From Mesorhizobium loti (GTDB taxonomy: Bacteria > Pseudomonadota > Alphaproteobacteria > Rhizobiales > Rhizobiaceae), in the NCBI GenBank assembly GCA_014189435.1, contig CP050293.1:4035001-4099000 (forward strand): a DNA stretch of 64,000 nt, given 5' to 3'. The translations under genes were made by a program, and so were the position numbers. Positions 29,656-46,284 of this stretch are shown here, in pieces; the stretch's first letter is position 1; each line of letters opens with the position of its first letter. The notes under the pieces were generated by a model that saw only the letters and a list, made by a program, of their open reading frames with translations, ran no database searches and was not told the DNA's origin.

Positions 29656-31230
29656 ATGAGCCAGTCGCCCTACCCCGCAATTGCAGCCGGACCGCCCCGG
29701 CCGAGCCTCATCCTGAGGCCCGGCCAGATCGCGCTGCCGCCCGGCATGGAGCGCTACACGATCCAGGGCAACGGCGCGGTTCTCATCGAGATCGAGGCCG
29801 GCGACACGATCACCGTGCGCAATGTCGAGGGTGGTCAGGCCTGCGAAATTCTGGCCTGGGACAAGACCGGCGCGACCGATCCTGGCATCCTTGGTGAAAC
29901 ACCGAACAGCAATGCCGCCGGCATCAAGGCGCTGTTGGTCGAGGGCGACGACAGTCTCGCATCCCTGCGCCGCGGGCTCGCTCGGCGGCAGGTACAGCTT
30001 GACCATGCCAAGGCGGTGCGCGTCTTCGGCGGCGCGACGCCGGCCGGAACCGAGCAGGCTTTCACCGTCGCGCGAGATGGCGCGATGCTGATTGCGGCCC
30101 CCGGCGGACCGATGCTGGTTTACGGTCACGACACAGCGACGCCACTCACGATCATCGTTCGCCGCGCCACGATCCGCCCGGCGACGAAGTCGCAGTTGGC
30201 CGACCCGCTTGCCGACCCGGTGCTCGATTTGCGTGTTCACTCGGCGACGGCGGAATCCTATTTCGTTAGGGCGGGCGACTATCTGCAGATCATTGATGTC
30301 GACGGACGCCAGTGCACCGACTTCCAGTGCTTTTCGGCGCGCAAGCTGGACAAGGGCCGCGACCATCCGCTCGACGTGACGACGACCCGGACGCTGATGG
30401 GTGCGAGCTACCCGGTGCCCGGCTTGCATTCGAAATATTATGACCAGGACATGGAGCCACTGGTCGAGGTGGTACAGGATACCTGCGGCCGGCACGACGC
30501 CTTCGCGCTCGCTTGCGCCGCCAAATATTACGACGACATCGGCTATCCCGGCCACACCAACTGCTCGGAGAATTTCAACCGCGCGCTGGCCGACAAGGGC
30601 GTCACGCCACGCGCCGGCTGGATGGCGATCAACTTCTTTTTCAACACGGCGATCGACGCGCATGGCGTCATGGTGTCCGACGAGCCATGGTCGCGGCCGG
30701 GCGACTATGTGTTGCTCAGGGCACTCACCGACATCGTCTGCGTGTCCTCCGCCTGCCCCGACGACACGACGCCGGCCAATGGCTGGAACCCGACCGACAT
30801 CCATGTGCGGACCTATTCCGGCCAGCACAAATTCTCGCGAGCGATCGCCAGACGCATGACGCCCGATCTCGGAACCGAAAATGACCCGCGAGACTTCATT
30901 TCATTCGAGCTTTGCCAAGCACACCCGCAACTTCGCCGAGTACCGGGGCTATTGGCTCGCCAATGCCTTCGCCAAGGACGGGCCGATCGCCGAATATTGG
31001 GCCTGCCGGCAGGACGCCGTCATCATGGACCTGTCGCCGCTGCGCAAATTCGAGATCACCGGTCCGGATTCGGAAGCGCTGCTGCAGTACACGCTGACCC
31101 GCGACGTCAAGAAGCTCGGCGTCGGCCAGGTGGTCTATTCGGCCATGTGCTACGAGCATGGCGGCATGATCGACGACGGTACGCTGCTGCGGCTGGGCCA
31201 GGACAATTTCCGCTGGGTCGGCGGCGATGA
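29656..31230 (+). CDS. tdm: TMAO demethylase, N-terminal DUF1989 part (reading frame broken near 30880)
   Basis: The frame encodes a DUF1989 domain over about 408 residues: PSLILRPGQIALPPGMERYT at the start, then RAGDYLQIIDVDGRQCTDFQ, CGRHDAFALACAAKYYDD, GHTNCSENFNRALADKGVTP and NPTDIHVRTYSGQHKFSRAI. The Cys/His/Asp residues fit the metal-dependent Tdm active domain, which converts TMAO to dimethylamine plus formaldehyde. After residue 408 the frame continues for 116 low-complexity Arg/Gly/Ala residues that are only the shadow of the next frame. Tdm proteins are normally one chain of about 800 residues with a C-terminal folate domain. That domain is found here in the +1 frame. Confidence 0.78.
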   Translation: MSQSPYPAIAAGPPRPSLILRPGQIALPPGMERYTIQGNGAVLIEIEAGDTITVRNVEGGQACEILAWDKTGATDPGILGETPNSNAAGIKALLVEGDDSLASLRRGLARRQVQLDHAKAVRVFGGATPAGTEQAFTVARDGAMLIAAPGGPMLVYGHDTATPLTIIVRRATIRPATKSQLADPLADPVLDLRVHSATAESYFVRAGDYLQIIDVDGRQCTDFQCFSARKLDKGRDHPLDVTTTRTLMGASYPVPGLHSKYYDQDMEPLVEVVQDTCGRHDAFALACAAKYYDDIGYPGHTNCSENFNRALADKGVTPRAGWMAINFFFNTAIDAHGVMVSDEPWSRPGDYVLLRALTDIVCVSSACPDDTTPANGWNPTDIHVRTYSGQHKFSRAIARRMTPDLGTENDPRDFISFELCQAHPQLRRVPGLLARQCLRQGRADRRILGLPAGRRHHGPVAAAQIRDHRSGFGSAAAVHADPRRQEARRRPGGLFGHVLRAWRHDRRRYAAAAGPGQFPLGRRR

Positions 31231-32026
31231 TCTGTCCGGCGAATGGCTGCGCGAGACGGCAGCGAAACTCGGCCTCAACGTGCTGGTGCGTTCCTCCACC
31301 GACCAGATGCACAATGTCGCCGTGCAGGGACCAAAGAGCCGCGACATCCTCAGGGAAGTGATCTGGACCTCGCCGCTGCAGCCGTCGATCGATGAACTCG
31401 AATGGTTCCGCTTTGCGGTGGCGCGCATCGGCGGCGGCAACGGCATTCCGGTCGTCGTCTCGCGCACCGGCTATACCGGCGAACTCGGCTACGAGATCTG
31501 GTGCCATCCGCGCGACGCCGAAAAGGTGTTCGACGCCATCTGGGAAGCCGGCCAGCCGCATGGCCTGAAGCCGATGGGGCTGCAGGCGCTCGACATGGTG
31601 CGCATCGAGGCCGGGCTGATCTTCGCCGGTTACGAATTTTCCGACCAGACCGATCCGTTCGAGGCGGGTATCGGCTTCACCGTACCGTTGAAGACCAAGA
31701 CCGACGATTTCATCGGCCGCGCGGCGCTGATCCGGCGCAAGGAGCACCCGCAGACAAAGCTGGTCGGTCTCGACATCGACGCCAATGTCGCGGTCGACCA
31801 TGGCGACTGCGTCCATGTCGGCCGCGCCCAGATCGGCGTGGTCACATCAGGCATGCGCTCGCCAGCGCTGAACAAGACCATCGCGCTGGCCAGGCTCGAC
31901 GTCACCCACGCCGCTGTCGGTTCCGAGGTCGAGATCGGCAAGCTCGACGGCCATGCCAAGCGGCTGCCGGCGCGCGTCGTTGCGTTTGCGCATTACGATC
32001 CGCAGAAGACCAAACCGCGCTCCTGA
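30881..32026 (+). CDS. tdm: TMAO demethylase, C-terminal GcvT-like folate-binding part
   Basis: A 381-residue aminomethyltransferase-family module: EYRGYWLANAFAKDGPIAEY, MDLSPLRKFEITGPDSEALL, CYEHGGMIDDGTLLRLGQDN, SRTGYTGELGYEIWCHPRDA and VTSGMRSPALNKTIALARLD. In Tdm this domain captures formaldehyde on tetrahydrofolate. ATG 30881 lies inside the upstream frame, out of register by +1, at GAACCGAAAATGACC. A weak GGA-type ribosome binding site allows independent initiation. With the upstream part, the total span of 2371 bases equals 790 codons plus one base, close to intact Tdm. Confidence 0.8.
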   Translation: MTRETSFHSSFAKHTRNFAEYRGYWLANAFAKDGPIAEYWACRQDAVIMDLSPLRKFEITGPDSEALLQYTLTRDVKKLGVGQVVYSAMCYEHGGMIDDGTLLRLGQDNFRWVGGDDLSGEWLRETAAKLGLNVLVRSSTDQMHNVAVQGPKSRDILREVIWTSPLQPSIDELEWFRFAVARIGGGNGIPVVVSRTGYTGELGYEIWCHPRDAEKVFDAIWEAGQPHGLKPMGLQALDMVRIEAGLIFAGYEFSDQTDPFEAGIGFTVPLKTKTDDFIGRAALIRRKEHPQTKLVGLDIDANVAVDHGDCVHVGRAQIGVVTSGMRSPALNKTIALARLDVTHAAVGSEVEIGKLDGHAKRLPARVVAFAHYDPQKTKPRS

Positions 32027-34123: not shown

Positions 34124-34165
34124 GCGAATATGCTTGTTGTACGATCGTTCAACAAGCATATTCGC
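34124..34165. promoter_or_regulatory. 42-base perfect palindrome abutting the flavoprotein start codon
   Basis: Sixteen-base arms GCGAATATGCTTGTTG and CAACAAGCATATTCGC flank TACGATCGTT. It ends nine bases before ATG 34175. The inner 24 bases recur at 46245-46284 with one central change. Probable TetR-type operator, and potentially an mRNA hairpin. Confidence 0.8.
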
Positions 34166-34174
34166 GAAGCTCCT

Positions 34175-36277
34175 ATGACCTGCAATCCTCGCTACGAAAT
34201 CCTGTTCGAGCCGATGCGGATCGGGCCGGTCACCGCGCCGAACCGCTTCTATCAAGTGCCGCACGCCAGCGGCATGACCAACGCCCTGCCACGGGTGCGC
34301 GCCGCCTTTCGCGAAGCCAAGGCCGAGGGTGGATGGGGGGTGATCTGCACCGGGGCCTGTTCGATCGACCCCAGTTCGGACGACGCGCCGCTGCCTTTCG
34401 CCACGCTGTGGGACGACAACGACATCCGCGCGCATGCGCTGATGACGGAGGCCGTGCACCGCCATGGCGCGCTGGCCGGCGTGGAACTGTGGCACGGCGG
34501 CGCGTCGGTGATGAACAGGACAAGCCGCCTGCCGCCGCTGTCGCCGTCCGGCATTCCCTGGATGGCCACGCATGTCGGCTTCATGGGCAATTTGCGGCCG
34601 AAGACCATGGACAAGGCCGATATACGCGAGGTCTTGAGATGCCAGGCCGAAGCGGCGCGCAAGGCGCGTACGGCGGGCTTCGACATCGTCTATGTCTATG
34701 CCGGCATGGGCTATCTCGGCTACGAGTTCCTGCTGCCCGAATACAATCATCGCGTCGACGAATACGGCGGATCGATCGCGAACCGGGTGCGCTTCGTGCG
34801 CGAGATGATCGAGGTCACCAAGGATGCCGTCGGCAAGGATTGCGGTGTCGCCTTGCGCGTCAGCCTCGAGGAACTGCGCGGCAGGCCCGGCCGCAATCAG
34901 CCCTCCGAGGCGCACGAACTGGTCGAGGTGCTGGCCGACCTGCCCGACCTGTTCGACGTCAAGATGGATTCCAGTCCGACCGACTGTTCGGCGTCGCGCT
35001 TCACCGGTGAAGGCAGCCATGAGCCGGTGATCGATTTCGTCAAGTCGCTAACGAAAAAGCCGGTGGTTGGTGTCGGGCGCTTCACCTCGCCCGACACCAT
35101 GGTCTCGCAGATCCGGCGCGGCGTTCTGGACTTCATCGGCGGCGCGCGGCCTTCGATCGCCGACCCCTTCCTGCCGAACAAGATCCGCGAGGGCCGCGAG
35201 GTCGAGATCCGCGAATGCATCGGCTGCAACATCTGCATTTCGAGCTGGCATGACGGCGTGCCGGTACGCTGCACCCAGAACCCGACCGCTGGCGAAGAGT
35301 GGCGGCGCGGCTGGCATCCCGAACGCGTCGAGCGTGCCGACAATCCCGAACGAATTCTGATTGTCGGCGGCGGACCGGCCGGGCTCGAATGCGCGCTGAC
35401 GCTTGGCCGCCGCGGCCATGAGGTCATGCTCGCCGATAGCAGCCGGAGTTTCGGCGGGCGGCTGACTTTCGAGAAGACGCTGCCCGGCCTTTCGGCCTGG
35501 AACCGCGTCGTCGACTACCGGCTCGGGCGCCTCGGCGAGATGAGCAACGTCTCGCTCTATCCGGAGAGTGCGCTGGGCGTGGACGAGATCATCGACCTGG
35601 CGCCGGATCGTGTCGTGCTGGCGACCGGCGCGCGCTGGAGCAACATGCTCTATTCCTCGCTGGAAATTCCGGTCGGCCGGCTCGACCATCCCGATGTGCT
35701 CACCCCGGACGACATCGCCGAAGGCCGGGTTCCCAAGGGGCCGACCCTGGTCTTCGATTTCGACAATTATTACATGGGCGGCGTTCTGACCGAACATCTG
35801 GCGGCACAGGGCATCCCGGTCAGTTACGTGACGCCGGCGGGCCAGGCTTCCGCCTGGACGGTCATGACCAACGAGCTGCCGCTGGTGCATCGCGCGCTGG
35901 CGCGGCGCAAGGTGCCGGTGACCACGCTGCACCTCCTGAAATCCTTCGACGGCGAGATGGCGACGCTGGCGCATCTGTTCACTGGCGAGGAGGTCCGCGT
36001 GGCCTGCCGCTCGGTGCTGATCGTCGGGCTGAGATTGCCGCGCGGCGAGCTGTTCGAGGCGCTGACGCAACGGGCGGAGGCGCTTGACGGTGCCGGCATC
36101 CGCAGCGTCGATCGTATCGGCGACACGCTGGCGCCGGGCGCCATCGCGCACGCGGTGCACAGCGGCCATAAGCTGGCTCAGGAGATCGGTGCGAAAATCC
36201 GCTGGCAACCCTACCGCCGCGACACGCCCATCGTCGACGCGGTGGCGGATTTCGATATGCGGACAGCTGCTGAATAG
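34175..36277 (+). CDS. TMADH/DgcA-family FMN and 4Fe-4S oxidoreductase
   Basis: A 700-residue flavoprotein. The N-terminal old-yellow-enzyme barrel (FEPMRIGPVTAPNRFYQVPH) is followed by a 4Fe-4S motif CIGCNICISSW with a fourth Cys in VRCTQNP (C348, C351, C354, C366). A C-terminal nucleotide-binding domain (RILIVGGGPAGLECALTLGR) completes the chain. Order, length and cluster spacing match trimethylamine/dimethylamine dehydrogenases and dimethylglycine or stachydrine demethylases. The Trp after the cluster corresponds to an aromatic-bowl residue of TMADH. It likely removes an N-methyl group oxidatively from an amine or betaine. ATG 34175 is chosen; the upstream 34016 start would run through the palindrome. 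Confidence 0.82.
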   Translation: MTCNPRYEILFEPMRIGPVTAPNRFYQVPHASGMTNALPRVRAAFREAKAEGGWGVICTGACSIDPSSDDAPLPFATLWDDNDIRAHALMTEAVHRHGALAGVELWHGGASVMNRTSRLPPLSPSGIPWMATHVGFMGNLRPKTMDKADIREVLRCQAEAARKARTAGFDIVYVYAGMGYLGYEFLLPEYNHRVDEYGGSIANRVRFVREMIEVTKDAVGKDCGVALRVSLEELRGRPGRNQPSEAHELVEVLADLPDLFDVKMDSSPTDCSASRFTGEGSHEPVIDFVKSLTKKPVVGVGRFTSPDTMVSQIRRGVLDFIGGARPSIADPFLPNKIREGREVEIRECIGCNICISSWHDGVPVRCTQNPTAGEEWRRGWHPERVERADNPERILIVGGGPAGLECALTLGRRGHEVMLADSSRSFGGRLTFEKTLPGLSAWNRVVDYRLGRLGEMSNVSLYPESALGVDEIIDLAPDRVVLATGARWSNMLYSSLEIPVGRLDHPDVLTPDDIAEGRVPKGPTLVFDFDNYYMGGVLTEHLAAQGIPVSYVTPAGQASAWTVMTNELPLVHRALARRKVPVTTLHLLKSFDGEMATLAHLFTGEEVRVACRSVLIVGLRLPRGELFEALTQRAEALDGAGIRSVDRIGDTLAPGAIAHAVHSGHKLAQEIGAKIRWQPYRRDTPIVDAVADFDMRTAAE

Positions 36278-36332
36278 AGCAATTCCAGGAAAAGTGTGAA
36301 CCGGTTTTCCGTCCGGAATTGCGTCAAAAAAG
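36276..36332. repeat. Interspersed palindromic repeat, family A, copy 2
   Basis: AGAGCAATTCCAGGAAAAG to TTGCGTCAAAAAA is the reverse complement of the 11041-11096 copy with few differences. It fills the gap between the flavoprotein and MttB genes. The mttB-like ribosome binding site (AGAAGG) comes just after it. Confidence 0.85.
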
Positions 36333-36347
36333 GAGTTCTAGAAGGCC

Positions 36348-37886
36348 ATGGAGCGCATCACGGCACGTCGCAGACCCGGCCGCCCGCAACGCGAGATCGG
36401 CGGCATCGAGCAGCGGCCGTGGAAGCAGCTGACGCGGCCTTACGCGCCGATCGAGATCCTGTCGGCCGATCAGGTGCAGACGATCCACGAAATGGGCCTG
36501 ACCATCCTCGAAGAGATCGGCATGCGGGTGCTGCAGCCGCAGGCGCGGCAATTCTACCGCTCGGCCGGCTGCGATGTCGACGACGGCGAGATGCGGGTGC
36601 GCTTCGACCGCGCCATGGTCATGGAGCGCGTCGCTATGGCGCCGTCATCTTTCGAACTGCGCGCCCGCAATCCGGCGAAGAACGTCAAGGTCGGCGGGCG
36701 GCACTGCATCCTGTCGTCGGTCGGCGGCCCGGCCTATGTCATGGACAATGATCGCGGCCGCCGGCCCGGCACCTATGCCGAGATGTGCGATTATCTGAAG
36801 CTGATCCAGTCGTTCAACGTGCTGCATCAAGAGGGCGGCGGGCCGTTCGAGCCGCTCGACCTGCACCAGAACACACGCCATCTCGACCTCTACTATGCCG
36901 AGATCACCTTGCTCGACAAGAACTGGCAGCCGCAGGCGCTCGGCCGCGGGCGGGCCATCGACGCACTGGAGATGGTGGCGATTTCACTGGGCACGACGCG
37001 CGAAAATCTGGCGCAGGAGATGCCGGTGTTCACCGGCATCATCAACACCAATTCGCCGCTGCAGCTTGACGAGCCGATGGCCGAAGGGTTGATCGCGCTG
37101 GCCGAACATGGCCAGGTCAATGTCATCACACCGTTCACGCTGGCAGGCGCGATGAGCCCGGTGACGCTGGCCGGCGCGCTGTCGCAACAACATGCCGAGG
37201 CGCTGGCCGGCATCGTGCTGACCCAGATCGTGCGCCCCGGCGTGCCGGTGATGTATGGCGGCTTCACTTCCAATGTCGACATGAAGACCGGCGCGCCGGC
37301 CTTCGGCACGCCGGAATACACGCAGGCCGCGCAGATCACCGGTCAGCTCTGCCGGTTGATCGGCGTGCCGTTCCGCTCCAGCAACGTCACCGCCGCCAAT
37401 TCGGTCGATGCGCAGGCCGCCTATGAGAGCGCCATGTCGCTGTGGGGCTGCCTGATGGGCGGGGCCAACCTGGTGCTGCACGCGGCCGGCTGGCTCGGCG
37501 GCGGGCTGACGGCATCGTTCGAGAAACTGGTCATCGACGCCGAGATGCTGCAGATGATGTGCGCCTATTTCGACCCGCCGGTGGTCGACATCGACACACT
37601 GGCGCTGGAAGCCGTGCGCGAGGTCGGCCCGGCCGGGCACTTCTTCGGCGCCGCGCACACCATGCAGCGCTACGAGCGGGCGTTCTACTCGCCGCTGGTC
37701 TCCAACTGGGACAATTACGACACCTGGATGGAGCGCGGCCAGATCACTGCGCGCGAACGCGCCAATGTCATCTGGAAACGCATGGTCGCCGAGTATGAGC
37801 AGCCGCCGATCGATCCCGGCATCGACGAGGCGCTGCGGGATTATATGGAGCGGCGGAAACGCGAGGGCGGTTGCCCGCTGAATTGA
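36348..37886 (+). CDS. Trimethylamine methyltransferase (MttB) family protein, non-pyrrolysine
   Basis: A 512-residue MttB-superfamily TIM-barrel protein: ILSADQVQTIHEMGLTILEE near the start, EGGGPFEPLDLHQNTRHLD, NVITPFTLAGAMSPVTLAGA, VPVMYGGFTSNVDMKTGAPA, and the C-terminal GPAGHFFGAAHTMQRYERAF. There is no in-frame amber codon where archaeal MttB carries pyrrolysine, so it belongs to the betaine-type branch (compare MtgB, MtpB, MtcB), which transfers a methyl group from a quaternary amine to a corrinoid. No corrinoid protein gene is in the window. It follows the flavoprotein gene and presumably shares its operator and substrate pathway. Confidence 0.83.
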   Translation: MERITARRRPGRPQREIGGIEQRPWKQLTRPYAPIEILSADQVQTIHEMGLTILEEIGMRVLQPQARQFYRSAGCDVDDGEMRVRFDRAMVMERVAMAPSSFELRARNPAKNVKVGGRHCILSSVGGPAYVMDNDRGRRPGTYAEMCDYLKLIQSFNVLHQEGGGPFEPLDLHQNTRHLDLYYAEITLLDKNWQPQALGRGRAIDALEMVAISLGTTRENLAQEMPVFTGIINTNSPLQLDEPMAEGLIALAEHGQVNVITPFTLAGAMSPVTLAGALSQQHAEALAGIVLTQIVRPGVPVMYGGFTSNVDMKTGAPAFGTPEYTQAAQITGQLCRLIGVPFRSSNVTAANSVDAQAAYESAMSLWGCLMGGANLVLHAAGWLGGGLTASFEKLVIDAEMLQMMCAYFDPPVVDIDTLALEAVREVGPAGHFFGAAHTMQRYERAFYSPLVSNWDNYDTWMERGQITARERANVIWKRMVAEYEQPPIDPGIDEALRDYMERRKREGGCPLN

Positions 37887-37926
37887 GATTATGGGGTGCG
37901 ATGCTGATTTGAGGGTAGCATCCGGT

Positions 37927-38083
37927 CGCCCCCTCTGTCCTGCCGGACATCTCCCCCTCAAGGGGGGAGATCGGATTTCACTTCGGCCTTCGCAAACCAT
38001 CGACGTTGAAGGAGAAGCGCCTTCATCGGAGCTGCCAATCTCCCCCCTTGAGGGGGAGATGTCCGGCAGGACAGAGGGGGGGT
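37927..38083. repeat. Inverted pair of rhizobial intergenic repeats, family B, second locus
   Basis: Units at about 37927-37975 (CCCCCTCTGTCCTGCCGGAC) and 38036-38083 (GAGATGTCCGGCAGGACAGA) are mutually inverted and close to those at 12053-12243. They sit between the converging mttB-like and tetR genes. Confidence 0.85.
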
Positions 38084-38104
38084 CATAGCGCCGACCTGAA
38101 ATAC

Positions 38105-38785
38105 TTACGCGTCCCGCAAAGGCCCAACCTGCCCCTCGAGCATCTCAAACCCCGCAGCCTCCGCGGCCTGCGGGGTCACGACGCTTTCATCAAGACACCA
38201 TTCGAGCCAGAGCCCATCGACCAGCGCGATGAAATTGCGCGCCAGCGTCGGAGCATCGACTTGCCTGCCGCGCGGCACGGCGACCGCGGCGATGTCCTCG
38301 GCGAGTTCCGCCCGGTAGGCGTCATAGAGTTCGCGATGCGCCGCCTTGAGGCGTGGGTTGACGGCGATCTCGCCCCACAGCGACAGCCAGATCAAGAGAT
38401 TGTCACGGCTGAAATAATCGGGCGAGAAATTCGAGTGCACCAGGGCGGCAAGTGCTGCCTGCGGCGACCAGTCTGACGTCTCGGCGCGGCGGCGCTTGGC
38501 TTCGGCGATCTGGTTGTTGACGCTGGCGTAGAGCGAGGATTTGTAGACTTCGACCAGCAAGCCATCGAGGCTTTCGAAGTGATGGTTGATGAGGCCGCGC
38601 GAGACGCCGGCCTCCTTGCAGATACGATCGATGGTGAAGGCGCCGATGCCGCCGACCGACAGGCATCGCGTCGCCGCCTCGATCAGCATGGAACGGCGCA
38701 CATCCGCCTGCTCGCGGCTGAAGCGCGGCGGCGATTTCTTGGCGCCGCGCTTGCGTTTTTCGGGTGCTGGTTCTCTGTCCGTCAT
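38105..38785 (-). CDS. TetR-family regulator, BetI-like
   Basis: A 226-residue regulator with a TetR N-terminal HTH (IGAFTIDRICKEAGVSRGLI followed by NHHFESLDGLL). The C-terminal region WLSLWGEIAVNPRLKAAHRE resembles BetI and relatives that respond to choline or other quaternary amines. ATG 38785 is chosen over TTG 38788. It is the last gene of the minus-strand hydrolase-ABC operon. Since two palindromes of the same core stand before this operon and the converging flavoprotein-MttB operon, it is the likely repressor of both. Confidence 0.82.
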   Translation of the reverse strand: MTDREPAPEKRKRGAKKSPPRFSREQADVRRSMLIEAATRCLSVGGIGAFTIDRICKEAGVSRGLINHHFESLDGLLVEVYKSSLYASVNNQIAEAKRRRAETSDWSPQAALAALVHSNFSPDYFSRDNLLIWLSLWGEIAVNPRLKAAHRELYDAYRAELAEDIAAVAVPRGRQVDAPTLARNFIALVDGLWLEWCLDESVVTPQAAEAAGFEMLEGQVGPLRDA

Positions 38786-38829
38786 CAAGCCCAGCTAAAC
38801 GATCACATCTTTGCTGTCCACGGAAGCGA

Positions 38830-40392
38830 TCATGCCTTCTTCTTGAACAGCACCGGATTGGGGTGGCCATCCGGATAGATAACGGGCTCGAAACTGGTCT
38901 TGTGGATGACCACCAGCGGCTGGTGGCAGATGAAGACGAAACCGCCGGATTGCTCCATCAGGTCCTCCATCCGGTTGGACAAGGCGATGCGCTTGGCCTC
39001 GTCGCTTTCCGCCACCAACTGCTGATAGCTGGTTTCGAACTCAGCACTGTCAAAGCCGGACCAGTTGTAGGCGCCGATCTGGTCGGGGCGGAACCAGACC
39101 AGGTTCTCGGACGGGTCGATGCCGCCGGCGAAATCCATCAGCGCCAGGTCGATGTTCTTGTAGCCCTCGCCTTGCGTCTTGTCGCCGACGCCCCAGAAGG
39201 CAGCCTCGTCATAGGGCTGGATTTCGACCTTGATGCCGGCCTGTTCGAGACTGGCCTGGATGATCTGCGCGGTCGCGGTGCGGATGGAATCATTCATCAC
39301 CGTCAAGGTCAGCGACAGGTCGCTGACACCGGCTTCGGCCAGAAGTGCCGCGGACTTCTCATAGTCCGGTGCGGCGATCAGATTGCTGGCGCGCGCGAAT
39401 TTGGTGCCGGGCTGGACGACGCCAGTGGAGCGCTTGGTGAGATCGTCATAGACGCCGGTCAGGATCTGCCCGACATCGACGCCATACTGTACGGCCTGGC
39501 GGACTTTCAGGTCCTTGAGGCGCGGGCTCAGCATGTTGATGGTCAGCCAGACATAACGGGTCGACTGCGCCTCAATCAGGTTCGTGTCGGCGGGTGGGCT
39601 GGCCTTGACCGCCTTCGTCGCCGAAATGGCGATCTTGGTGTAGTCGAAGGCGTCGGCCTCATAGGCCAGCTGTGCCGCCTGATCGTCGGCGACGACATAG
39701 ATCTCGACCTTGCCGAAATCCGGCTTCGGCCCCGGCCAGTCAGGGTTGGCGGTCAGCGTCACCTTCTGCTTCTGCTGCCAGTCGGAGAAGAGGTAGGGAC
39801 CGCAGGTCGCCGGCGGCTCGGTGGTGAACTTGCCGCCCGCCTTCTCGGTGCCGGCGCGGCTGATGATGTGGCCGCCATAGTAGGGCAGGCTGGTGACGAA
39901 AATCGGCTGGTAGGGTTCTTTGAGGTGGATGATGCCGTTTCTGGCATCGACGACCTCGACGCGGTCGAGTTTTTCGAACTGATAGGCCCAGGGCGACGAC
40001 AGGCTCTTGTCGGCGATGCGTTCGAACGAGAACTTCACGTCATCTGATGTGACCGCGCCAAAGCCATTTGACCATTTCAGCCCGTCGATCAAGGTGAAGG
40101 CGATGGTCTTCGGATCTTTCTGTTCGAGCTTTTCCGCGCCCCACAGCGACCACGGCGAGCCCTTCCTGATATCGTCGAAGTGGTTCAGCGAGACATAGAT
40201 GCCGCGCATCATGACATCCTCGATGCCGCCATTCATGAAGGCGGGATCGAGGCATTGCAGATCGCCCTCCATGCGGATGCGCAACGTGTCGCCGGCAGCC
40301 GACCAGGCGAAGCCCGGCTTCATCGCCAGGCCGGCGCCCAGCACGCCAGCCGCTTTCAGGAATGCACGTCTGTCCATGTTCCATTGCGTCAT
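38830..40392 (-). CDS. ABC transporter substrate-binding protein, family 5
   Basis: A 520-residue DppA/OppA-type binding protein with a Tat-like signal (MDRRAFLKAAGVLGAG, about residues 6-21, cleavage near SAA). SBP_bac_5 elements include IEDVMMRGIYVSLNHFDDI, NGFGAVTSDDVKFSFERIAD and LKDLKVRQAVQYGVDVGQIL. It delivers an oligopeptide-like or opine-like solute to the permease encoded upstream in the same operon. Two bases separate it from the ATPase gene. Confidence 0.85.
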   Translation of the reverse strand: MTQWNMDRRAFLKAAGVLGAGLAMKPGFAWSAAGDTLRIRMEGDLQCLDPAFMNGGIEDVMMRGIYVSLNHFDDIRKGSPWSLWGAEKLEQKDPKTIAFTLIDGLKWSNGFGAVTSDDVKFSFERIADKSLSSPWAYQFEKLDRVEVVDARNGIIHLKEPYQPIFVTSLPYYGGHIISRAGTEKAGGKFTTEPPATCGPYLFSDWQQKQKVTLTANPDWPGPKPDFGKVEIYVVADDQAAQLAYEADAFDYTKIAISATKAVKASPPADTNLIEAQSTRYVWLTINMLSPRLKDLKVRQAVQYGVDVGQILTGVYDDLTKRSTGVVQPGTKFARASNLIAAPDYEKSAALLAEAGVSDLSLTLTVMNDSIRTATAQIIQASLEQAGIKVEIQPYDEAAFWGVGDKTQGEGYKNIDLALMDFAGGIDPSENLVWFRPDQIGAYNWSGFDSAEFETSYQQLVAESDEAKRIALSNRMEDLMEQSGGFVFICHQPLVVIHKTSFEPVIYPDGHPNPVLFKKKA

Positions 40393-40393
40393 G

Positions 40394-41422
40394 TCAGTTT
40401 CCCCTTTGGTTTGCGGAAGCGCGTGAGAAGGCTTCCCGTTCTTGCCCGCCTGTCACCAGCGGGAAATGGCAGCGCACCATCCGGTCAGTGCCCATCGGTC
40501 GATAGGCCGGTGCCTCGGTCTTGCAGCGATCGCGGGCGATCGGACAGCGTGTGTGGAATTCGCAGCCCGATGGGCGACGGAACACGCTCGGAATCTCGCC
40601 GGTGACGGCAGGGTTCTGGCTGCGCCGGCGCGGATCGGGTATCGGCTCGGACTGGATCAGCGTCGCGGTGTAGGGATGCAGCGGCGCCGAAAACACATCC
40701 TGCGTCGGCCCGGTCTCGACCAGCCGGCCGAGATACATGATGGCCAGCCTATCGCTGACATGGCGGATCATGGCCAGATTGTGGGTGACGATCATGGCGG
40801 CGAAACCGAGTTCGCGCTTCAATTCACCGATCAGGTTGAGCACGTCGCCCTGCACGGAGACATCGAGCCCAGCCGTCGGCTCGTCTGCGAGCAGCAGATG
40901 CGGCTTCATCGCCAGCGCACGGGCAACACCAACACGGCGCGCCTGGCCACCCGACAGCTCATGCGGAAAGCGGTCGACGAAGGAGGCCGGCAGGCCGACC
41001 AACGCCAGCAGCGCTTTTGCCGCGGCACGGCGGTCCGGCATCGGCAGCCCCTGGATGATCTGCGGTTCGGTGAGCAGTGTGCCGATGCGCAGGCGCGGGC
41101 TGAGCGAGGCGACCGGATCCTGGAACATCATCGCCGAGCGCCTTCGCATGGCGCGGAAATCGGCTGGTGTCGCCACGTCCCTGCCCTCGAAAATGATGCG
41201 GCCGGCGGCGGCGCGCACGAGGCCAAGAATGGTGCGGGCAAGCGTCGTCTTGCCGGAACCGGACTCGCCGACCAGCCCAAGCGTCTCGCCCGGCATCAGC
41301 GACAGCGTCACCCCGTCGATGACGTTGAAGCTTGGCAAAGGAAACGGATTGATCAGGCGGCTGAGCAAGCCGCTGCGAGCGAAGGTCACCGACAGATCGT
41401 CGATGGCGAGCAGCGGGCTCAT
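40394..41422 (-). CDS. Oligopeptide-type ABC transporter ATP-binding protein (second ATPase)
   Basis: A 342-residue DppF/OppF-like ATPase. Walker A is GESGSGKTT, the signature is LSGGQARRVGVARALAMKPH, and Walker B is LLLADEPTAGLDV. The C-terminal oligopeptide-transporter motif has Cys residues (CEFHTRCPIARDRC) that suit a 4Fe-4S site. ATG 41422 overlaps the preceding stop (ATGA); the longer frame from 41533 lies inside the neighbour. Fourth transporter gene of the operon. Confidence 0.88.
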   Translation of the reverse strand: MSPLLAIDDLSVTFARSGLLSRLINPFPLPSFNVIDGVTLSLMPGETLGLVGESGSGKTTLARTILGLVRAAAGRIIFEGRDVATPADFRAMRRRSAMMFQDPVASLSPRLRIGTLLTEPQIIQGLPMPDRRAAAKALLALVGLPASFVDRFPHELSGGQARRVGVARALAMKPHLLLADEPTAGLDVSVQGDVLNLIGELKRELGFAAMIVTHNLAMIRHVSDRLAIMYLGRLVETGPTQDVFSAPLHPYTATLIQSEPIPDPRRRSQNPAVTGEIPSVFRRPSGCEFHTRCPIARDRCKTEAPAYRPMGTDRMVRCHFPLVTGGQEREAFSRASANQRGN

Positions 41423-42384
41423 GGCGTCACCGCGTGACAGCGCGCGACATGCGAGGCGGACAGTTTCACCAGTGGCGGCGCGACCGAAGCGCAAGGCGCG
41501 AAGGCGCGGTCGCAGCGCGGCGCGTAGACGCAACCCATTGGGGGCTGCGTCAAGTTGGGCAGTGAGCCGGGAATGGTCGGCAGCCTCTCCAGCCTTTCGT
41601 GGAAACGGGCCGGATCGCAGGCGAGCAGCGCTTGCGTATAGGGGTGCCGTGCGTCGTGGAAGATCGCGTCGACCTCGCCGCCCTCGACCACCTCGCCGGC
41701 ATACATGACATAGACCCGGTCGCAGAGCTCGGCGATGACGCCGAGATGGTGCGAGACGACGATGATGATTCCGTTGTAGTCGCGCCGGAGTTCGCGCAGC
41801 AGATGGATGATCTGCGCCTCCATGGTCACGTCGAGCGCCGTCGTCGGCTCGTCGGCGATGAGCAGGCCGGGATCGGTCAGCAGGGCTGCGGCGATGGCCA
41901 CGCGCTGGCGCATGCCGCCGGAGAGTTCGTGCGGATAGCAGGCCATCCGCCGTTCGGCATCCGCGATGCCGACGCGGCCGAGCATAGCGGCGATCCGCGC
42001 CCGCTTCTGCGCGCGGCCGAGATCCTTGCGGTGGTGCTGGAAGTCGACGAGTTGGTCGCCGATGGTCAGCACCGGGTTGAAGGCGGTCATCGGATCCTGG
42101 CCGACCAGCGCGATCTCGTCGCCGCGCAGCAGGCGCTGATGGTGTGCGTCGAGCTTCGCCAGGTCGACGCCATTGTAGCTGATCGACCCGTCGATGCGGG
42201 CATTGGCCGGCAACAGGTTGGCTAAAGCGGTGACCAGCGTGGACTTGCCGCAGCCGCTTTCGCCGACGATGCCGATCACCTCGCCGGGATGCGCCTCGAT
42301 GTCGACATGGCGCAGCGCATGCACTGCGCCATGCGGCGTCTCATAGCGGACGCTGAGATCGACGGCGGAAAGCGAGCCGGTCAT
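41419..42384 (-). CDS. Oligopeptide-type ABC transporter ATP-binding protein (first ATPase)
   Basis: A 321-residue DppD/OppD-like ATPase with Walker [10 protein letters not shown], signature [20 protein letters not shown], Walker [14 protein letters not shown] and C-terminal [14 protein letters not shown]. Four-base overlaps with both neighbours show tight coupling. It pairs with the second ATPase to energise import. Confidence 0.88.
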
Positions 42385-43268
42385 GCCGGCCTCCGCAATT
42401 GCAGGCGCGGGTCCAGATAGTCGCGCAGGCCCTCGCCGAGGAAGGTGAAGCCGAGCGTCGCCAGCACCAGCGGCAGCCCGCCGAAGATGACCATGAACGG
42501 TGCCGAGCGGATGCTGGTATAGCCATCATAGAGGATCGAGCCCCAGGACGGCGTCGGTGGGCGCACGCCGAGCCCGAGGAAGCTAAGGCCGGCCTCGACC
42601 ATGATGACGACCGGAATGTCCATCGACAGAAGGATGATCAGCGGGCCGACGACATTGGGCAGAAGGTGGATGAAGATGATGCGCGCGGCACTGGCGTCGA
42701 GCAGGCGCTCGGCGAGGATGTAGTCGCTGTTCTTCAGCGCCAGCGTCTGCGCTCGGATCAGCCTGGCATAGCTCGGGAACGAGGTCGCGGCGATGACGAT
42801 GATCAGCGTGCCGGTGCCGGCGCCGAGCACGGTGATGATGGCGAGCGCGAACATGATCATCGGCAGCGAGTTCAGGCTGTCGAAGCTCAGCACCAGAATG
42901 GCGTCGAGCCAGCGCGGCCCGTAGCCGGCGATAAGCCCGAGCATCAAACCGATGGCGCCTGCGATGGCGACGGAGACCATGGCAATGGTCAGCGCCGTGC
43001 GTGCGCCAAAAATGACGCGCGACAGCAGATCACGGCCGAGATGATCGGTGCCGAACCAGTGCGCGAGCGATGGCGGCTGCAGCTTGTGCAGCACGTCGAT
43101 CTTGATCGGCGAGTAGGGCGCCAGCCATGGTGCGAAAGCGGCGGTGACTAGGAAGCCGGTGACCAGGATCAGCGCTACGCAAGTGAACGGATCGGCGAGC
43201 AGCGCGCGCAGCAGCGGCAGCCTTTGTCGGTCCGGAAGGGAGAGCGAGGCGTCAGCCACGGAAGACAT
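42381..43268 (-). CDS. Oligopeptide-type ABC transporter permease (DppC-like)
   Basis: A 295-residue inner-membrane permease with six helices. It has the DppC N-terminal pattern (APWLAPYSPIKIDVLHKLQP, FGTDHLGRDLLSRVIFGART) and the EAA-type loop around LAERLLDASAARIIFIHLLP. ATG 43268 is preferred; it overlaps the DppB-like stop by 17 bases. Forms the pore with the DppB-like subunit. Confidence 0.85.
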   Translation of the reverse strand: MSSVADASLSLPDRQRLPLLRALLADPFTCVALILVTGFLVTAAFAPWLAPYSPIKIDVLHKLQPPSLAHWFGTDHLGRDLLSRVIFGARTALTIAMVSVAIAGAIGLMLGLIAGYGPRWLDAILVLSFDSLNSLPMIMFALAIITVLGAGTGTLIIVIAATSFPSYARLIRAQTLALKNSDYILAERLLDASAARIIFIHLLPNVVGPLIILLSMDIPVVIMVEAGLSFLGLGVRPPTPSWGSILYDGYTSIRSAPFMVIFGGLPLVLATLGFTFLGEGLRDYLDPRLQLRRPA

Positions 43269-44202
43269 CGCGCACCCTCGGGTCGAGCCGCGCAATCAGG
43301 AGATCGGCGGCGATGGTGATGGAGACGTAGATGGCGGTCATGATCAGCACCGTGCCCATGACGACCGGATAGTTGCGGGTGTTGACGGCGTCGGTGATGA
43401 GCTTGCCGATGCCGGGCCGGGCGAACACCGCCTCGACGAAGACGGCGCTGGACAGGATGCTGCCGAGGCCGACGGCGACCAGAGAGATGGTCGGGATGAT
43501 GGCGATGCGCAGCGCGTATTTGGAGACGATCTTCCACTCCGGCAGGCCGAACGAGCGCGCGGTGCGGATGTGCGGTTCACCCATCACCTCCATCATCGAG
43601 GCGCGGACCATGCGGGCGATGTAGCCGATCCAGCCGAGCGCGATGGCTGCCGCCGGCATGATCAGCGCCTTGGCCTGGCTGACGAAGTCACCGGCCTCGC
43701 CGGCGCCGATGGCCGGCAGCCAGCGCAGCGTCACAGCAAAAAGCAGCAGCGAATAGATGGCAACGACGAAGGACGGCACGGCGATGACGCCGACCGAGAG
43801 CACACCGATGATGGCATCGGCTGTTGTGCCGCGCCGCATCACAGACAGGCAGCCGAGCGGAACCCCGATGAGAAGCGCAACGGTAAGCGCGGTCAGCCCG
43901 AGGATCAGCGTGTTGGGCAGCGCTTCCAGGACCAGGGCGGAGACGGGCCGGTTCGACCAGACGTCGTAGCCGAGATTGCCGGTCAGCGCGTTGCGGAAGA
44001 ATTCGACGATCTGCCACCAGACCGGCTGGTCGAGGCCCATGCGCTCAATCAGCAGCCGCTTCAGTTCCGGCGTGGCGCGCGGACCGAGCGCCACGGTTGC
44101 CGGATCGCCCGGCACCAGGAAGACGGCCGCATACATGGCGACCATGACGAGGACGAGGATCAGGATCCCGAGACCGATGCGCTTCACTGCATATGCAAGC
44201 AT
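43252..44202 (-). CDS. Oligopeptide-type ABC transporter permease (DppB-like)
   Basis: A 316-residue permease starting MLAYAVKRIGLGILILVLVM, the usual DppB N-terminus. It carries the VFLVPGDPATVALGPRATPE periplasmic loop and the binding-protein-dependent permease loop (ARSFGLPEWKIVSKYALRIA). Nineteen bases downstream of the hydrolase gene. Confidence 0.87.
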   Translation of the reverse strand: MLAYAVKRIGLGILILVLVMVAMYAAVFLVPGDPATVALGPRATPELKRLLIERMGLDQPVWWQIVEFFRNALTGNLGYDVWSNRPVSALVLEALPNTLILGLTALTVALLIGVPLGCLSVMRRGTTADAIIGVLSVGVIAVPSFVVAIYSLLLFAVTLRWLPAIGAGEAGDFVSQAKALIMPAAAIALGWIGYIARMVRASMMEVMGEPHIRTARSFGLPEWKIVSKYALRIAIIPTISLVAVGLGSILSSAVFVEAVFARPGIGKLITDAVNTRNYPVVMGTVLIMTAIYVSITIAADLLIARLDPRVRDVFRG

Positions 44203-44221
44203 GGTCTCCTCTTCGCTCCTG

Positions 44222-46231
44222 TCAGGCGAAATCGCGCCTGATGCGCCGCGTTGCCGAGGCGCTGTGGACGAGCGTGCCCCGTTCTCGCGCCTCGATCCGC
44301 CAGCTCAGGCTGAAGTGCGTTTCGTCCGATGTCAGCTCGGTGACGGCAAACGCTTCGGTGTCGGCATCGCCGCTGGCAATCGCCCAGCGGTATTCGGTGA
44401 CGAGTTTCGCCGACAGCGGATCGTCACTGCTGATGCTCACCGTGTCGCTGTTGGCCGAGGACACGGTGATGGCGCGATCGTCGTAGCGCCTGCGTCCGTG
44501 GTCTGAACTCAGCGCGATGGTCTGCACGCCCGAGCCGACATCGTCGGTGACGATGCGGCGGTCGAATCCTTCTTCCAGCGTCGTCGTCGGCACCGGCGGC
44601 GAGGTTTCGGCGGGCTCGAAGCGCACGTCGCGGTCGCGAGCCGACGGCGGCCGCACCGGCAGCATCAGCGTGCTGTCGCCGGTCGCCACCGACAGCGTCG
44701 ACAGTTTCGGCTGCGGCCACAGGATCGGCCAGTGCTGGTTGGCCAGCGCCAGCCGGATGCGGTGGCCCTTGGGCACCGTGCGGGCGAAATCATTGAGCTT
44801 CAGCCGAACGCGGAACGGTGTTCCGATCGGACACGGGGTCGGATGCTCGTGGCTGTCTCTGTGGCTGAGGTTGAGCACGCCATAGGTCATCAGCGCCGAG
44901 GTGCCGTCGGGATAGACATCGCACAGCCGGGCGGCGAGGTTGACATGCGGCTGGTCGACAGTGACGAGCAGATCGAGCTCCGGCGCGCCGAGCAAGGTCA
45001 GGTCGTTGTCGAGCGGGGGCGTGTCGAAGCACAGCGCCAGACCGTCCTCACGACGCTGGTCGATGGCCATGTCCGGGCAGGAACCGCCATAGCCGCCCCA
45101 GCGGCCGCAGTCGCGCCCGGCCGTGGCCGGCGAGCACACGGAGAGCGTGGCGCCCGGCGCAGGTTCGCTGCCCAACCCGGCGGCGTTCAGGTGCAAGGCA
45201 CGGCGCTCGATACGCGGCGACGGCCACTGGTCCTCGGCGGCCCAGTTGCCGGCATGGTCGGGGAGATAAAAAGGTTGTGGCCGCTCCTCGCCGGTGATCC
45301 AGACGCGGTAGAGCGGTTCGTCCATGATGCCGGTGTCTTCGCCACACAGCCAATGCCGCCACCAGCGCAGCGCCTCCTGCAGGTAGCCGATCAGCGGCCC
45401 CGGCGCACCGCGACAGGGATAGGCATGCGACCAGGGGCCGACGATGCCGAGCTTCGGCCCCGGCAGATGTTCGAGCAGACGCGGGACGAAGTTGGAGTAG
45501 CTGTCCTCCCAGCCGCAGACGGCCATCACCGCGCATTCGATCGCGGCGTGGTCTTCGCAGACCGAGCCCTGCCGCCAGTAGTCGTCGCGACGCTGATGCG
45601 CGAGCCAGATTTCCGACAGCGAGCTTGTCGCCGCAAGACGGCTGGCCCACATGGCGCGCCAGGCCTCGCCGACGATCTGCGGATCGGGCGCCATCGCCTT
45701 CTTCACCAGCATGAAGTTCGACCACATCTCCTGCTCGGTCAGCAGCGCGCCGCCCATATAGTGGATGTCGTCGGCATAGCGGTCATCGGTGGCGCAGTTG
45801 GCGATGATCGCCTTCAAGGCCGGCGGCCGACGCGCCGCGACCTGCAGCGCGTTGAAGCCGCCCCAGGAAATGCCGGTCATGCCGACATTGCCGTTGCACC
45901 AGGGCTGTGCGGCGAGATGCGCGATGATCTCGCAGGCGTCCTCCTGCTCGCGCGGCAGATATTCATCGGCCAGATCGCCGTCGGAATCGCCGGAGCCCCT
46001 GATATCGATGCGGGCGCAGGCGATGCCGTGGCCGGCGAGCCAGGGGTGGATGTCGATGTCGCGCGCCACCGTGCCGTCGCGGCGGCGATAAGGCACCATT
46101 TCAACGACGACGGGCACCTTGGTATCGGTGCGCGGACGCCACAAAGTGGCGGCGATACGCGTGCCGTCGGCCAGCGTGATCCAGAGCGGATCGACGGTTT
46201 CGACGGCAAAGGGGAACTCGGTTCGTACCAC
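44222..46231 (-). CDS. CocE/NonD family alpha/beta hydrolase
   Basis: A 669-residue serine hydrolase of the X-Pro dipeptidyl-peptidase/cocaine-esterase class. The catalytic Ser122 lies in GISWGG, preceded by IDIRGSGDSDGDLADEYLP. The likely acid and base are in CGWEDSYSNF and GPWSHAYP. The C-terminal jelly-roll domain (about 400-580) shows LLGAPELDLLVTVDQPHVNL and KGHRIRLALANQHWP. No signal peptide is evident, so it acts in the cytoplasm on the imported compound, hydrolysing an ester, amide or X-Pro bond. The start is GTG 46231, 13 bases after a 40-base palindrome. First gene of a seven-gene operon. Confidence 0.85.
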   Translation of the reverse strand: MVRTEFPFAVETVDPLWITLADGTRIAATLWRPRTDTKVPVVVEMVPYRRRDGTVARDIDIHPWLAGHGIACARIDIRGSGDSDGDLADEYLPREQEDACEIIAHLAAQPWCNGNVGMTGISWGGFNALQVAARRPPALKAIIANCATDDRYADDIHYMGGALLTEQEMWSNFMLVKKAMAPDPQIVGEAWRAMWASRLAATSSLSEIWLAHQRRDDYWRQGSVCEDHAAIECAVMAVCGWEDSYSNFVPRLLEHLPGPKLGIVGPWSHAYPCRGAPGPLIGYLQEALRWWRHWLCGEDTGIMDEPLYRVWITGEERPQPFYLPDHAGNWAAEDQWPSPRIERRALHLNAAGLGSEPAPGATLSVCSPATAGRDCGRWGGYGGSCPDMAIDQRREDGLALCFDTPPLDNDLTLLGAPELDLLVTVDQPHVNLAARLCDVYPDGTSALMTYGVLNLSHRDSHEHPTPCPIGTPFRVRLKLNDFARTVPKGHRIRLALANQHWPILWPQPKLSTLSVATGDSTLMLPVRPPSARDRDVRFEPAETSPPVPTTTLEEGFDRRIVTDDVGSGVQTIALSSDHGRRRYDDRAITVSSANSDTVSISSDDPLSAKLVTEYRWAIASGDADTEAFAVTELTSDETHFSLSWRIEARERGTLVHSASATRRIRRDFA

Positions 46232-46244
46232 GGCAGGTACTCGT

Positions 46245-46284
46245 TAAATCGCCTTGTTGAACGTTCGTACAACAAGGCGATTTA
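46245..46284. promoter_or_regulatory. 40-base perfect palindrome abutting the hydrolase start codon
   Basis: Fifteen-base arms TAAATCGCCTTGTTG and CAACAAGGCGATTTA flank AACGTTCGTA. The inner 24 bases match the palindrome at 34124-34165 except at the central base. The outer arms differ in sequence but stay perfectly complementary. Candidate operator for the TetR regulator at 38105-38785. Confidence 0.8.

What the first reader, a model, noticed from the sequence alone, without database searches (positions are those of the whole stretch)
34124..46284. Two long palindromes with one core define a two-operon regulon of an uncharacterised amine-conjugate pathway
The flavoprotein-MttB operon (plus) and the hydrolase-ABC-TetR operon (minus) converge. 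Each begins with a perfect 40-42 base palindrome carrying the same core (GTTGTACGAWCGTTCAAC). The regulon combines an importer for a peptide- or opine-like solute, a cytoplasmic CocE/NonD hydrolase, a TMADH/DgcA-type demethylase, a non-pyrrolysine MttB protein and a BetI-like repressor. A consistent reading is uptake of an ester- or amide-linked N-methylated compound, its hydrolysis, then demethylation of the released betaine or amine. I know of no described pathway with this set.
Basis: partly seen in the sequence, partly recalled or inferred. Interest (0 to 1): 0.85.

Follow-up and report, generated by a model that had tools for sequence, protein, structure and literature searches.

The report
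TetR regulon for methylated-amine catabolism
Two gene sets in a soil bacterium, which together look able to import, cut and strip methyl groups from an unknown nitrogen compound, carry the same DNA switch, and that switch goes with these genes in related bacteria while the nutrient itself is still unidentified.

Summary
Two near-perfect palindromes (42 nt, 20 of 21 pairs; 40 nt, 18 of 20 pairs) share a 24-bp core, CTTGTTGWACGNNCGTWCAACAAG, just upstream of two convergent operons. In 61 genomes of the genus the core (up to 2 mismatches) occurs in exactly the 17 that carry this mttB and in none of the other 44. A matrix built from Mesorhizobium-group sites ranks promoters of the same genes first in 12 of 17 distant loci; the other five carry neither flavoprotein nor mttB. 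This is a dedicated regulon, most likely of its own TetR protein.

The likely role is uptake, cleavage and stepwise N-demethylation of a betaine-type conjugate, with a methyl group passed to MtgC/MtgD-type proteins encoded elsewhere. Substrate and reactions are inferred. TetR, MttB and flavoprotein are the steadier part; the S15/CocE hydrolase and Opp importer are a cassette that also occurs alone. The palindrome arms beyond the 24 bp look like by-products of template switching: two lineages became symmetric in opposite directions, and the outer pairing is often weak. Searches of open-licence papers found no description of this gene set.

The parts
34124..34165 (.). Site 1: 42-nt near-perfect palindrome; the 24-bp operator is 34133-34156; the right arm ends 9 nt before the flavoprotein ATG
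34175..36277 (+). TMADH/histamine-dehydrogenase-family flavoprotein, 700 aa; 4Fe-4S cysteines kept, several TMADH active-site positions changed
36348..37886 (+). MttB-superfamily methyltransferase without pyrrolysine, 512 aa
38105..38788 (-). TetR-family regulator with a BetI-type C-terminal domain, last gene of the minus operon
38830..40392 (-). Opp-type (SBP_bac_5) solute-binding protein; Tat-signal match below the Pfam cut-off
40394..41425 (-). Opp-type ABC ATPase (oppF-like)
41419..42384 (-). Opp-type ABC ATPase (oppD-like)
42381..43277 (-). Opp-type permease (oppC-like)
43252..44202 (-). Opp-type permease (oppB-like)
44222..46231 (-). S15 / CocE-NonD hydrolase with the CocE Tyr/Ser/Asp/His positions kept
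46245..46284 (.). Site 2: 40-nt near-perfect palindrome; the 24-bp operator is 46253-46276; the arm ends 13 nt before the hydrolase GTG (46231)

Best explanation
This is a self-contained catabolic regulon. SHOWN BY SEQUENCE: one 24-bp operator type sits about 30 nt upstream (centre to start codon) of the flavoprotein-mttB operon and of the hydrolase-Opp-TetR operon, is nearly confined to this locus genome-wide, and follows these genes through Alphaproteobacteria in several arrangements. INFERRED: the TetR protein encoded in the minus operon binds it as a dimer, blocks transcription, represses itself, and is released by a metabolite of the pathway. INFERRED: the Opp importer takes up a conjugate and the S15/CocE-type hydrolase splits it in the cytoplasm. 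INFERRED: MttB takes one methyl group from the quaternary amine and gives it to a stand-alone corrinoid protein (MtgC type) encoded elsewhere, then to folate by an MtgD/MetF2-like pair. INFERRED: the TMADH-family flavoprotein removes further N-methyl groups oxidatively. The outer arms of the palindromes are probably made by template switching at the operator and are not needed for regulation.
For: Operator and mttB occur in the same 17 of 61 genomes of the genus, 0 of 44 without mttB, reversed-pattern control 0. In Mesorhizobium-group loci 55 of 57 examined promoters carry the site with at most 4 mismatches. A matrix from those sites ranks promoters of the module genes first in 12 of 17 distant loci (best score per locus 12.2-28.8; highest of ten shuffles at most 6.6 in these 12). 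In the other five, which have neither flavoprotein nor mttB at E 1e-20, no score exceeds the locus's own shuffle maximum. In L085, which lacks the flavoprotein, an operator (12.2) lies before sarcosine-oxidase-type and dimethylglycine-dehydrogenase-type genes; in L091 a second one (14.4) lies before the likely start of an SBP_bac_5 gene. In a fourth arrangement flavoprotein, hydrolase, Opp, SBP and mttB lie in one run beside a divergent TetR gene. In 151 family genomes the eight best hydrolases (56% identity or more) lie in the same eight genomes and on the same contigs as the eight best mttB matches. The genome encodes a stand-alone corrinoid protein, DUF1638, a pterin-binding protein and an MTHFR-like protein together at C1 about 1.913-1.921 Mb, families as in the MtgBCD system of Ruegeria pomeroyi (PMC12478193; abstract, passages and Results part 1 of 2 read).
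Against: No substrate, binding or expression data exist. The hydrolase-Opp block is missing upstream of the TetR gene in L053, L057 and L062, and the hydrolase in L075, L084, L085, L087, L089 and L091 (L084 and L089 do have Opp-type genes at 31-45% identity). Among 22 mttB loci fetched at class level (53-65% identity by the genome search) none has the hydrolase and 5 have a flavoprotein (48-50%); several contigs are short. Beside mttB only L109 has a site scoring 10 or more (10.6); L123 and L125 have weak ones (6.3, 6.4), and L129 has two identical 14.1 hits about 5 kb from mttB, so scores of 12-15 alone are not decisive. Of 20 hydrolase relatives chosen (44-52% identity), 10 have Opp genes beside them and none a close mttB (L142 has one at 26%), so the hydrolase-importer pair also serves other pathways. 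The flavoprotein differs at the positions of TMADH Tyr60 and His172 and at the flavin-cysteine position.
Confidence: 0.72

Rival explanations
1. Two independent pathways share a regulator: MttB plus flavoprotein handle a free quaternary amine, while the hydrolase-Opp cassette handles a different solute and was placed under the same TetR protein by chance or as general scavenging.
For: Hydrolase-Opp pairs occur without a close MttB (10 of 20 fetched hydrolase loci), and the MttB-flavoprotein pair occurs without the hydrolase (L053, L057, L084, L087; L111, L112, L115, L117).
Against: The hydrolase stays linked to the flavoprotein in four arrangements and to mttB in three of them, including one run flavoprotein-hydrolase-Opp-SBP-mttB; L091 has an operator-like site before an SBP gene; three loci without the hydrolase carry an M19 dipeptidase nearby (L084, L087, L089; L084 by sequence clustering only).
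Confidence: 0.25
2. The long palindromes act as RNA hairpins in the leaders, or as cruciforms, and this structure is what selection keeps.
For: Both fold strongly as RNA (-27.0 and -31.1 kcal/mol, z -6.9 and -5.3), and outer arms differ between sites and species while staying complementary (outer-arm pairing above all 5000 permutations at each site).
Against: Outer pairing is weak in many loci that keep the operator (8 or more of 10 outer pairs in only 15 of 28 hydrolase sites and 19 of 31 flavoprotein sites), and no palindrome of 40 nt was found upstream of these genes in the distant loci scanned. The arms changed in opposite directions in two lineages and the flavoprotein-site core is inverted in L052 and L068, as template switching predicts (PMC8604942; passages read). 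Relatedness was not modelled in the permutations.
Confidence: 0.1
3. The pathway is ordinary glycine betaine degradation: MttB is an MtgB and the flavoprotein a dimethylglycine demethylase.
For: MttB-superfamily proteins demethylate betaines, R. pomeroyi uses an MtgBCD system (PMC12478193), and Asn, Arg and His proposed for MtgB in a docking study (PMC6855144, passages read) align with N233, R343 and H378 (read by hand).
Against: The Tyr94 position is Gly126 in the window and in all module orthologs examined, whereas a paralog 39% identical that lies beside the corrinoid-protein cluster has Tyr. The Asn/Arg/His set is found in most paralogs too, so it does not single out glycine betaine, and the Phe353 position is Gly in every row, that paralog included, so it does not discriminate either. 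An Opp importer and S15 hydrolase are not needed for free glycine betaine.
Confidence: 0.12
4. Another regulator, not the TetR protein of this operon, owns the operator.
For: No binding data; all 50 loci were found through the TetR protein, so the sample cannot show the operator without it; L076, L077, L079 and L092 encode TetR relatives (31-48% identity) without a site above their shuffle range.
Against: Among the loci, each one with a flavoprotein or mttB on the stretch has a site of this type, and in the distant loci with the divergent arrangement the TetR gene begins at or near it.
Confidence: 0.06

Closest known systems
MtgBCD glycine betaine demethylation of Ruegeria pomeroyi DSS-3 (PMC12478193)
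   Same: Aerobic alphaproteobacterium with PF06253 methyltransferases, stand-alone corrinoid protein, pterin-binding protein, MetF paralog and DUF1638; genes of these families are in this genome.
   Different: The window's MttB lies about 2 Mb from that cluster, differs at the Tyr94 position, and comes with a TetR operator, Opp importer, S15 hydrolase and TMADH-family flavoprotein. Sequences of the Ruegeria proteins were not compared.
Eubacterium limosum MttB-superfamily enzymes MtpB, MtcB, MtyB (PMC8604678)
   Same: Several substrate-specific MttB proteins share one corrinoid protein encoded apart (passages read).
   Different: Anaerobic acetogen; free quaternary amines; no linked hydrolase or Opp importer appears in the passages read.
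Trimethylamine dehydrogenase and histamine dehydrogenase (1djn, 3k30) and 6l6j
   Same: Long homology (E 1.1e-145 to 6.2e-185) and the 4Fe-4S cysteines.
   Different: Positions of TMADH Tyr60, Trp264 and His172 differ, and the flavin-cysteine position (Cys in both histamine dehydrogenases) is Ala, as in 6l6j; Trp355 and Asp267 positions kept (TMADH numbering and roles recalled; the TMADH chain shown carries Ala at position 30).
BetI, choline-binding TetR repressor
   Same: TetR_C_6 (BetI-type) C-terminal domain.
   Different: 93.8 bits against a BetI equivalog cut-off of 201.3; no bet genes in either operon.
Template switching between inverted repeats (PMC8604942)
   Same: Arm homogenisation and inversion of the centre, both patterns seen here.
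   Different: Described in that paper for yeast coding genes (passages read); here in a bacterial operator; the mechanism was not observed directly.

Membership tests
MttB superfamily (PF06253) | Match over the Pfam cut-off | tested here: met
   645.7 bits, cut-off 25
Trimethylamine:corrinoid methyltransferase MttB (TIGR02369) | Score over the equivalog cut-off | tested here: not met
   276.7 bits, cut-off 525
Trimethylamine:corrinoid methyltransferase MttB (TIGR02369) | In-frame amber codon for pyrrolysine | tested here: not met
   512-aa frame with no internal stop
Glycine betaine methyltransferase MtgB | Tyr94 of the docked betaine pocket (PMC6855144) | tested here: not met
   Aligned position is Gly126 (mapped by hand, docking-based). 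The Phe353 position is Gly386 but is Gly in all rows and does not discriminate
Glycine betaine methyltransferase MtgB | Methylates cob(I)alamin with glycine betaine | not testable with these tools
   needs purified protein
MtgBCD-type system | Stand-alone corrinoid protein and pterin-binding partner in the genome | tested here: met
   L096:14913-15650 and 8244-9275; 12 of 12 genomes checked, eight with the module and four without, have a PF02607 match in a frame of 233-305 aa, so it does not discriminate
TMADH/histamine dehydrogenase family | Homology over the flavoprotein length and 4Fe-4S Cys motif | tested here: met
Trimethylamine dehydrogenase | Flavin-linking Cys, Tyr60 and His172 positions | tested here: not met
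   Ala, Ala, Met in the window and in the orthologs of 61% identity or more (one row partial; roles recalled)
CocE/NonD (S15) hydrolase | TIGR00976 cut-off and catalytic Tyr/Ser/Asp/His | tested here: met
   210.8 bits, cut-off 66.3; YSDH in 38 of 39 rows, the other row partial; residue roles recalled
Opp/Dpp ABC importer | SBP_bac_5, two BPD_transp_1 permeases, two oligo_HPY ATPases | tested here: met
   ligand unknown
BetI | Score over the BetI equivalog cut-off | tested here: not met
   93.8 against 201.3 bits
TetR-operator regulon | Conserved operator at the transcription units of the locus and scarce elsewhere | tested here: met
TetR-operator regulon | Regulator binds the operator and ligand releases it | not testable with these tools
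   needs protein and DNA

The most novel reading that the evidence does not exclude
The regulon degrades a conjugated quaternary amine (a betaine joined by an amide or ester bond, for instance a betaine-containing dipeptide) that has not been recognised as a bacterial nutrient, through a pathway that joins an Opp importer and an S15 hydrolase to corrinoid-dependent and flavin-dependent N-demethylation; unrelated amide hydrolases (M19 dipeptidase, AstE/AspA type) may stand in for or work beside the S15 hydrolase in relatives.
Probability: 0.35. Interest if true: 0.75.

Novelty: new variant of a known kind. Interest (0 to 1): 0.6.

Why it matters
MttB-superfamily proteins are common in the window's family (109 of 151 genomes have a match at E 1e-100), but the substrate of this group is unknown; a Mesorhizobium salt-stress study calls mttB function in Mesorhizobium 'still unknown' (PMC4302635, passages read; not shown to be this mttB). 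A dedicated regulator with a sharp operator gives a direct handle: the inducer can be screened with a reporter and should be the pathway's substrate or product. The operator also lets the regulon be read out of other genomes, which may already add a sarcosine-oxidase-type cluster and a solute-binding protein in relatives. Separately, the operators look like a natural case in which a regulatory site was made into long palindromes by mutation, in opposite directions in two lineages.

Tried and rejected
Rejected: palindromes as dispersed repeats. Rejected: Rfam elements in the window (no match at gathering threshold). A consensus scan at the two sites and at the junction between the operons found no sigma-70 consensus match, so the promoter position is unknown; by eye, some distant loci have -35/-10-like hexamers overlapping the operator (sequences), which I do not count as evidence. 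The weak third site at C1:4477963 scores -0.3 with the 24-bp matrix (L100) and was set aside. An mttB identity of 53-58% does not by itself mark the module. The mttB of the Aestuariivirga-type loci (39-40% identity) is a different paralog.

Rows dropped and limits: L093 (46-residue match) was not scanned. In one search, loci whose stretch lacks the gene or its upstream part gave no promoter row, and the window itself was not among the 57. L053, L057, L062 and L074 are not in the tree, which was rooted on L073 and L075. Outer-arm permutations ignore relatedness. Shuffles keep base composition only, ten per locus. The 20 hydrolase relatives were chosen by me from the lists, and several are short contigs. 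Residue mapping to MtgB and TMADH was read from pairwise alignments; TMADH numbering and roles and the CocE triad are recalled. What I say of papers rests on abstracts and passages, for PMC12478193 also on Results part 1 of 2.

Not in print: the searches listed no paper that describes this gene set; one search listed 0 papers. Only open-licence PMC papers are held.
Full report
OBSERVATION. The two palindromes exist at the stated places. Site 1 (34124-34165) pairs at 20 of 21 positions and site 2 (46245-46284) at 18 of 20, so neither is perfect. Each holds the 24-bp sequence CTTGTTGWACGNNCGTWCAACAAG. In the window the 18-bp core is far above chance (4 matches against 0.01 expected). The plus operon is flavoprotein-mttB, the minus operon is hydrolase-oppB-oppC-oppD-oppF-SBP-TetR, and they converge near 38 kb.

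SPECIFICITY. The mttB ortholog (E 1e-180 or better) is present in 17 of 61 genomes of the window's genus (Mesorhizobium, judged from the named relatives). The 24-bp pattern with up to 2 mismatches is present in 17 of 61, and the two lists name the same genomes: 0 of 44 genomes without mttB have it, and the reversed control pattern has no hit. Fourteen of the 17 genomes have two places and three (G154, G167, G193) have one. All places lie on the contig of mttB except one of the two of the fragmented genome G173, whose sites have 2 mismatches. This is what a dedicated local operator predicts and what a dispersed repeat does not.

CONSERVATION. A search with the TetR protein gave 50 named loci: L044-L075 from Mesorhizobium and near relatives, L076-L093 more distant. 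In L044-L075 the order hydrolase-Opp-SBP-TetR / mttB-flavoprotein is mostly kept. Of 57 promoters examined there, 55 carry the site with at most 4 mismatches; the two flavoprotein promoters of L070 and L071 have 6. Its centre lies 27-35 nt upstream of the start, 21 in one locus. A matrix made from these sites alone was then used on 17 distant loci. In 12 the best-scoring places lie at promoters of module or linked genes (best score per locus 12.2-28.8; highest of ten composition shuffles at most 6.6 in these 12). In the other five (L076, L077, L079, L090, L092) no score exceeds the locus's shuffle maximum, and they have neither flavoprotein nor mttB at E 1e-20. L090 begins inside what looks like half an operator. 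The lower scores deserve care, because one unrelated place (L129) reached 14.1.

ARRANGEMENTS. Four were seen: convergent operons (Mesorhizobium group); flavoprotein-mttB divergent from hydrolase-TetR (L078, L080) or from TetR alone (L084, L087, L089); flavoprotein divergent from hydrolase-Opp-SBP-TetR without a close mttB (Aestuariivirga-type, L081-L083, L086, L088); and one run flavoprotein-hydrolase-Opp-SBP-mttB beside a divergent TetR gene about 33% identical, with a weaker related palindrome (scores 11.8, 12.3, 16.3) between them in three of four (L102-L105 with L039-L042). In L085 the flavoprotein is absent and an operator (score 12.2) lies before genes of sarcosine-oxidase and dimethylglycine-dehydrogenase type; in L091 a second operator (14.4) lies before the likely start of an SBP_bac_5 gene. 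These fit a pathway of uptake plus serial N-demethylation.

HOW FAR THE MODULE GOES. In the 151 family genomes the eight best hydrolase matches (56-100%) and the eight best mttB matches are in the same eight genomes and on the same contigs. Against this, 22 further mttB loci at class level have 0 hydrolases and 5 flavoproteins, several on short contigs; beside mttB only L109 (64% by local alignment) has a site of 10 or more (10.6), L123 and L125 have weak ones (6.3, 6.4). Of 20 hydrolase relatives that I chose (44-52%), 10 have Opp genes next to them, including two in the window's own genome, and none has a close mttB. So the hydrolase-Opp pair is a cassette that also occurs alone, and TetR-MttB-flavoprotein is the steadier part.

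ENZYMES. The hydrolase keeps the CocE Tyr/Ser/Asp/His positions and by eye has no signal-like start. MttB keeps Asn, Arg and His that a docking study proposed for MtgB but has Gly at the Tyr94 position (PMC6855144). That Gly is constant in the module orthologs, while a paralog beside the corrinoid-protein genes has Tyr. The Phe353 position is Gly in all rows and says nothing. The flavoprotein comes in two kinds. The window's kind has Ala/Ala/Tyr/Met/Asp/Trp at TMADH positions 30/60/169/172/267/355, the other Ala/Tyr/Tyr/His/Asp/Asn, and L058, L064, L070 and L071 carry the second kind (53% identity) in an otherwise Mesorhizobium-type locus. The same place is thus filled by enzymes with different pockets.

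METHYL ACCEPTOR. The genome has two PF02607 places, neither near the window's mttB. One is a protein of MtgC size at C1 about 1.920 Mb, with DUF1638, pterin-binding and MTHFR-like genes and an MttB paralog around it. In Ruegeria pomeroyi, mtgC and mtgD mutants do not grow on glycine betaine (PMC12478193), and E. limosum MttB proteins share a corrinoid protein encoded apart (PMC8604678, passages). All 12 genomes checked, eight with the module and four without, have such a PF02607 frame, so this allows the mechanism but does not prove it.

PALINDROME ARMS. Beyond the 24 bp the arms differ between sites and species yet often pair. Outer-arm pairing exceeds all 5000 permutations at both sites (relatedness not modelled). 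On a tree of five locus genes, at the hydrolase site the L050-L068 group has a right arm that copies the left, while the window's group has a left arm that copies the right, each compared by eye with the unpaired arms of L069; L056, inside the window's group, has unpaired arms there. L052 and L068 carry the flavoprotein-site core inverted. Arm homogenisation and inversion of the centre are both reported for template switching between inverted repeats (PMC8604942, passages). Many loci lack strong outer pairing (8 or more of 10 pairs in 15 of 28 and 19 of 31 sites), so I read the long arms as mutational by-products. An RNA-hairpin role is not excluded.

SETTING. Directly upstream lie a TMAO permease (893 bits, cut-off 690), TMAO-demethylase-like sequence (its C-terminal part 726 bits, below the full-length cut-off of 1100) and N-methylglutamate-pathway-type genes including a GmaS-like protein (675 bits for type III glutamate-ammonia ligase, cut-off 469.6), and further off a haem-dependent N-demethylase subunit. 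This neighbourhood is not constant: the TMAO genes were found beside the module in 10 of the 32 loci L044-L075, some of which are cut short.

VERDICT. The regulon is real and sharply defined. The pathway reading is plausible but its substrate and reactions are untested. I rate it a new variant of MttB-type quaternary-amine catabolism; the searches listed no paper that describes it.

Noticed in passing
window 29656-32026: TMAO-demethylase-like sequence lies in two overlapping frames, while in relatives (for example L044-L046) its two parts lie in one frame by the match coordinates; the window's copy looks frameshifted, and intact copies exist.
   Followed up: partly
window 12260-33991: A methylated-amine island: haem-dependent N-demethylase subunit, GcvT-like proteins, N-methylglutamate-pathway-type genes and TMAO permease, next to the regulon.
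   Followed up: partly
window 37929-38080: An inverted repeat with 46-nt arms, 98% complementary, 60 nt apart, lies at the junction of the two convergent operons; its role (terminator or mobile repeat) was not tested.
   Followed up: no
L145 and L146 (window genome C1 about 4.21 and 5.70 Mb): Two further S15 hydrolases with Opp-type transporter genes, so hydrolase-Opp cassettes are multiple in this genome.
   Followed up: no
L097:12423-18577 and L099:2330-11659: Other MttB paralogs: one beside a dimethylglycine-dehydrogenase-like gene and an M24 peptidase, one beside Opp transporter genes and a gene whose start resembles that dehydrogenase (the last not scanned).
   Followed up: no
L084, L087, L089; L080:10659-11804: M19 dipeptidase near flavoprotein-mttB where the S15 hydrolase is missing (L084 by clustering only), and an AstE/AspA-type gene in L080, which has the hydrolase; BKACE and histone-deacetylase-like genes in L089.
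   Followed up: partly
L058, L064, L070, L071: The flavoprotein is replaced by a second kind (53% identity) in an otherwise Mesorhizobium-type locus.
   Followed up: partly
L053, L057, L062: The hydrolase-Opp-SBP block is missing upstream of the TetR gene in these Mesorhizobium-group loci.
   Followed up: no
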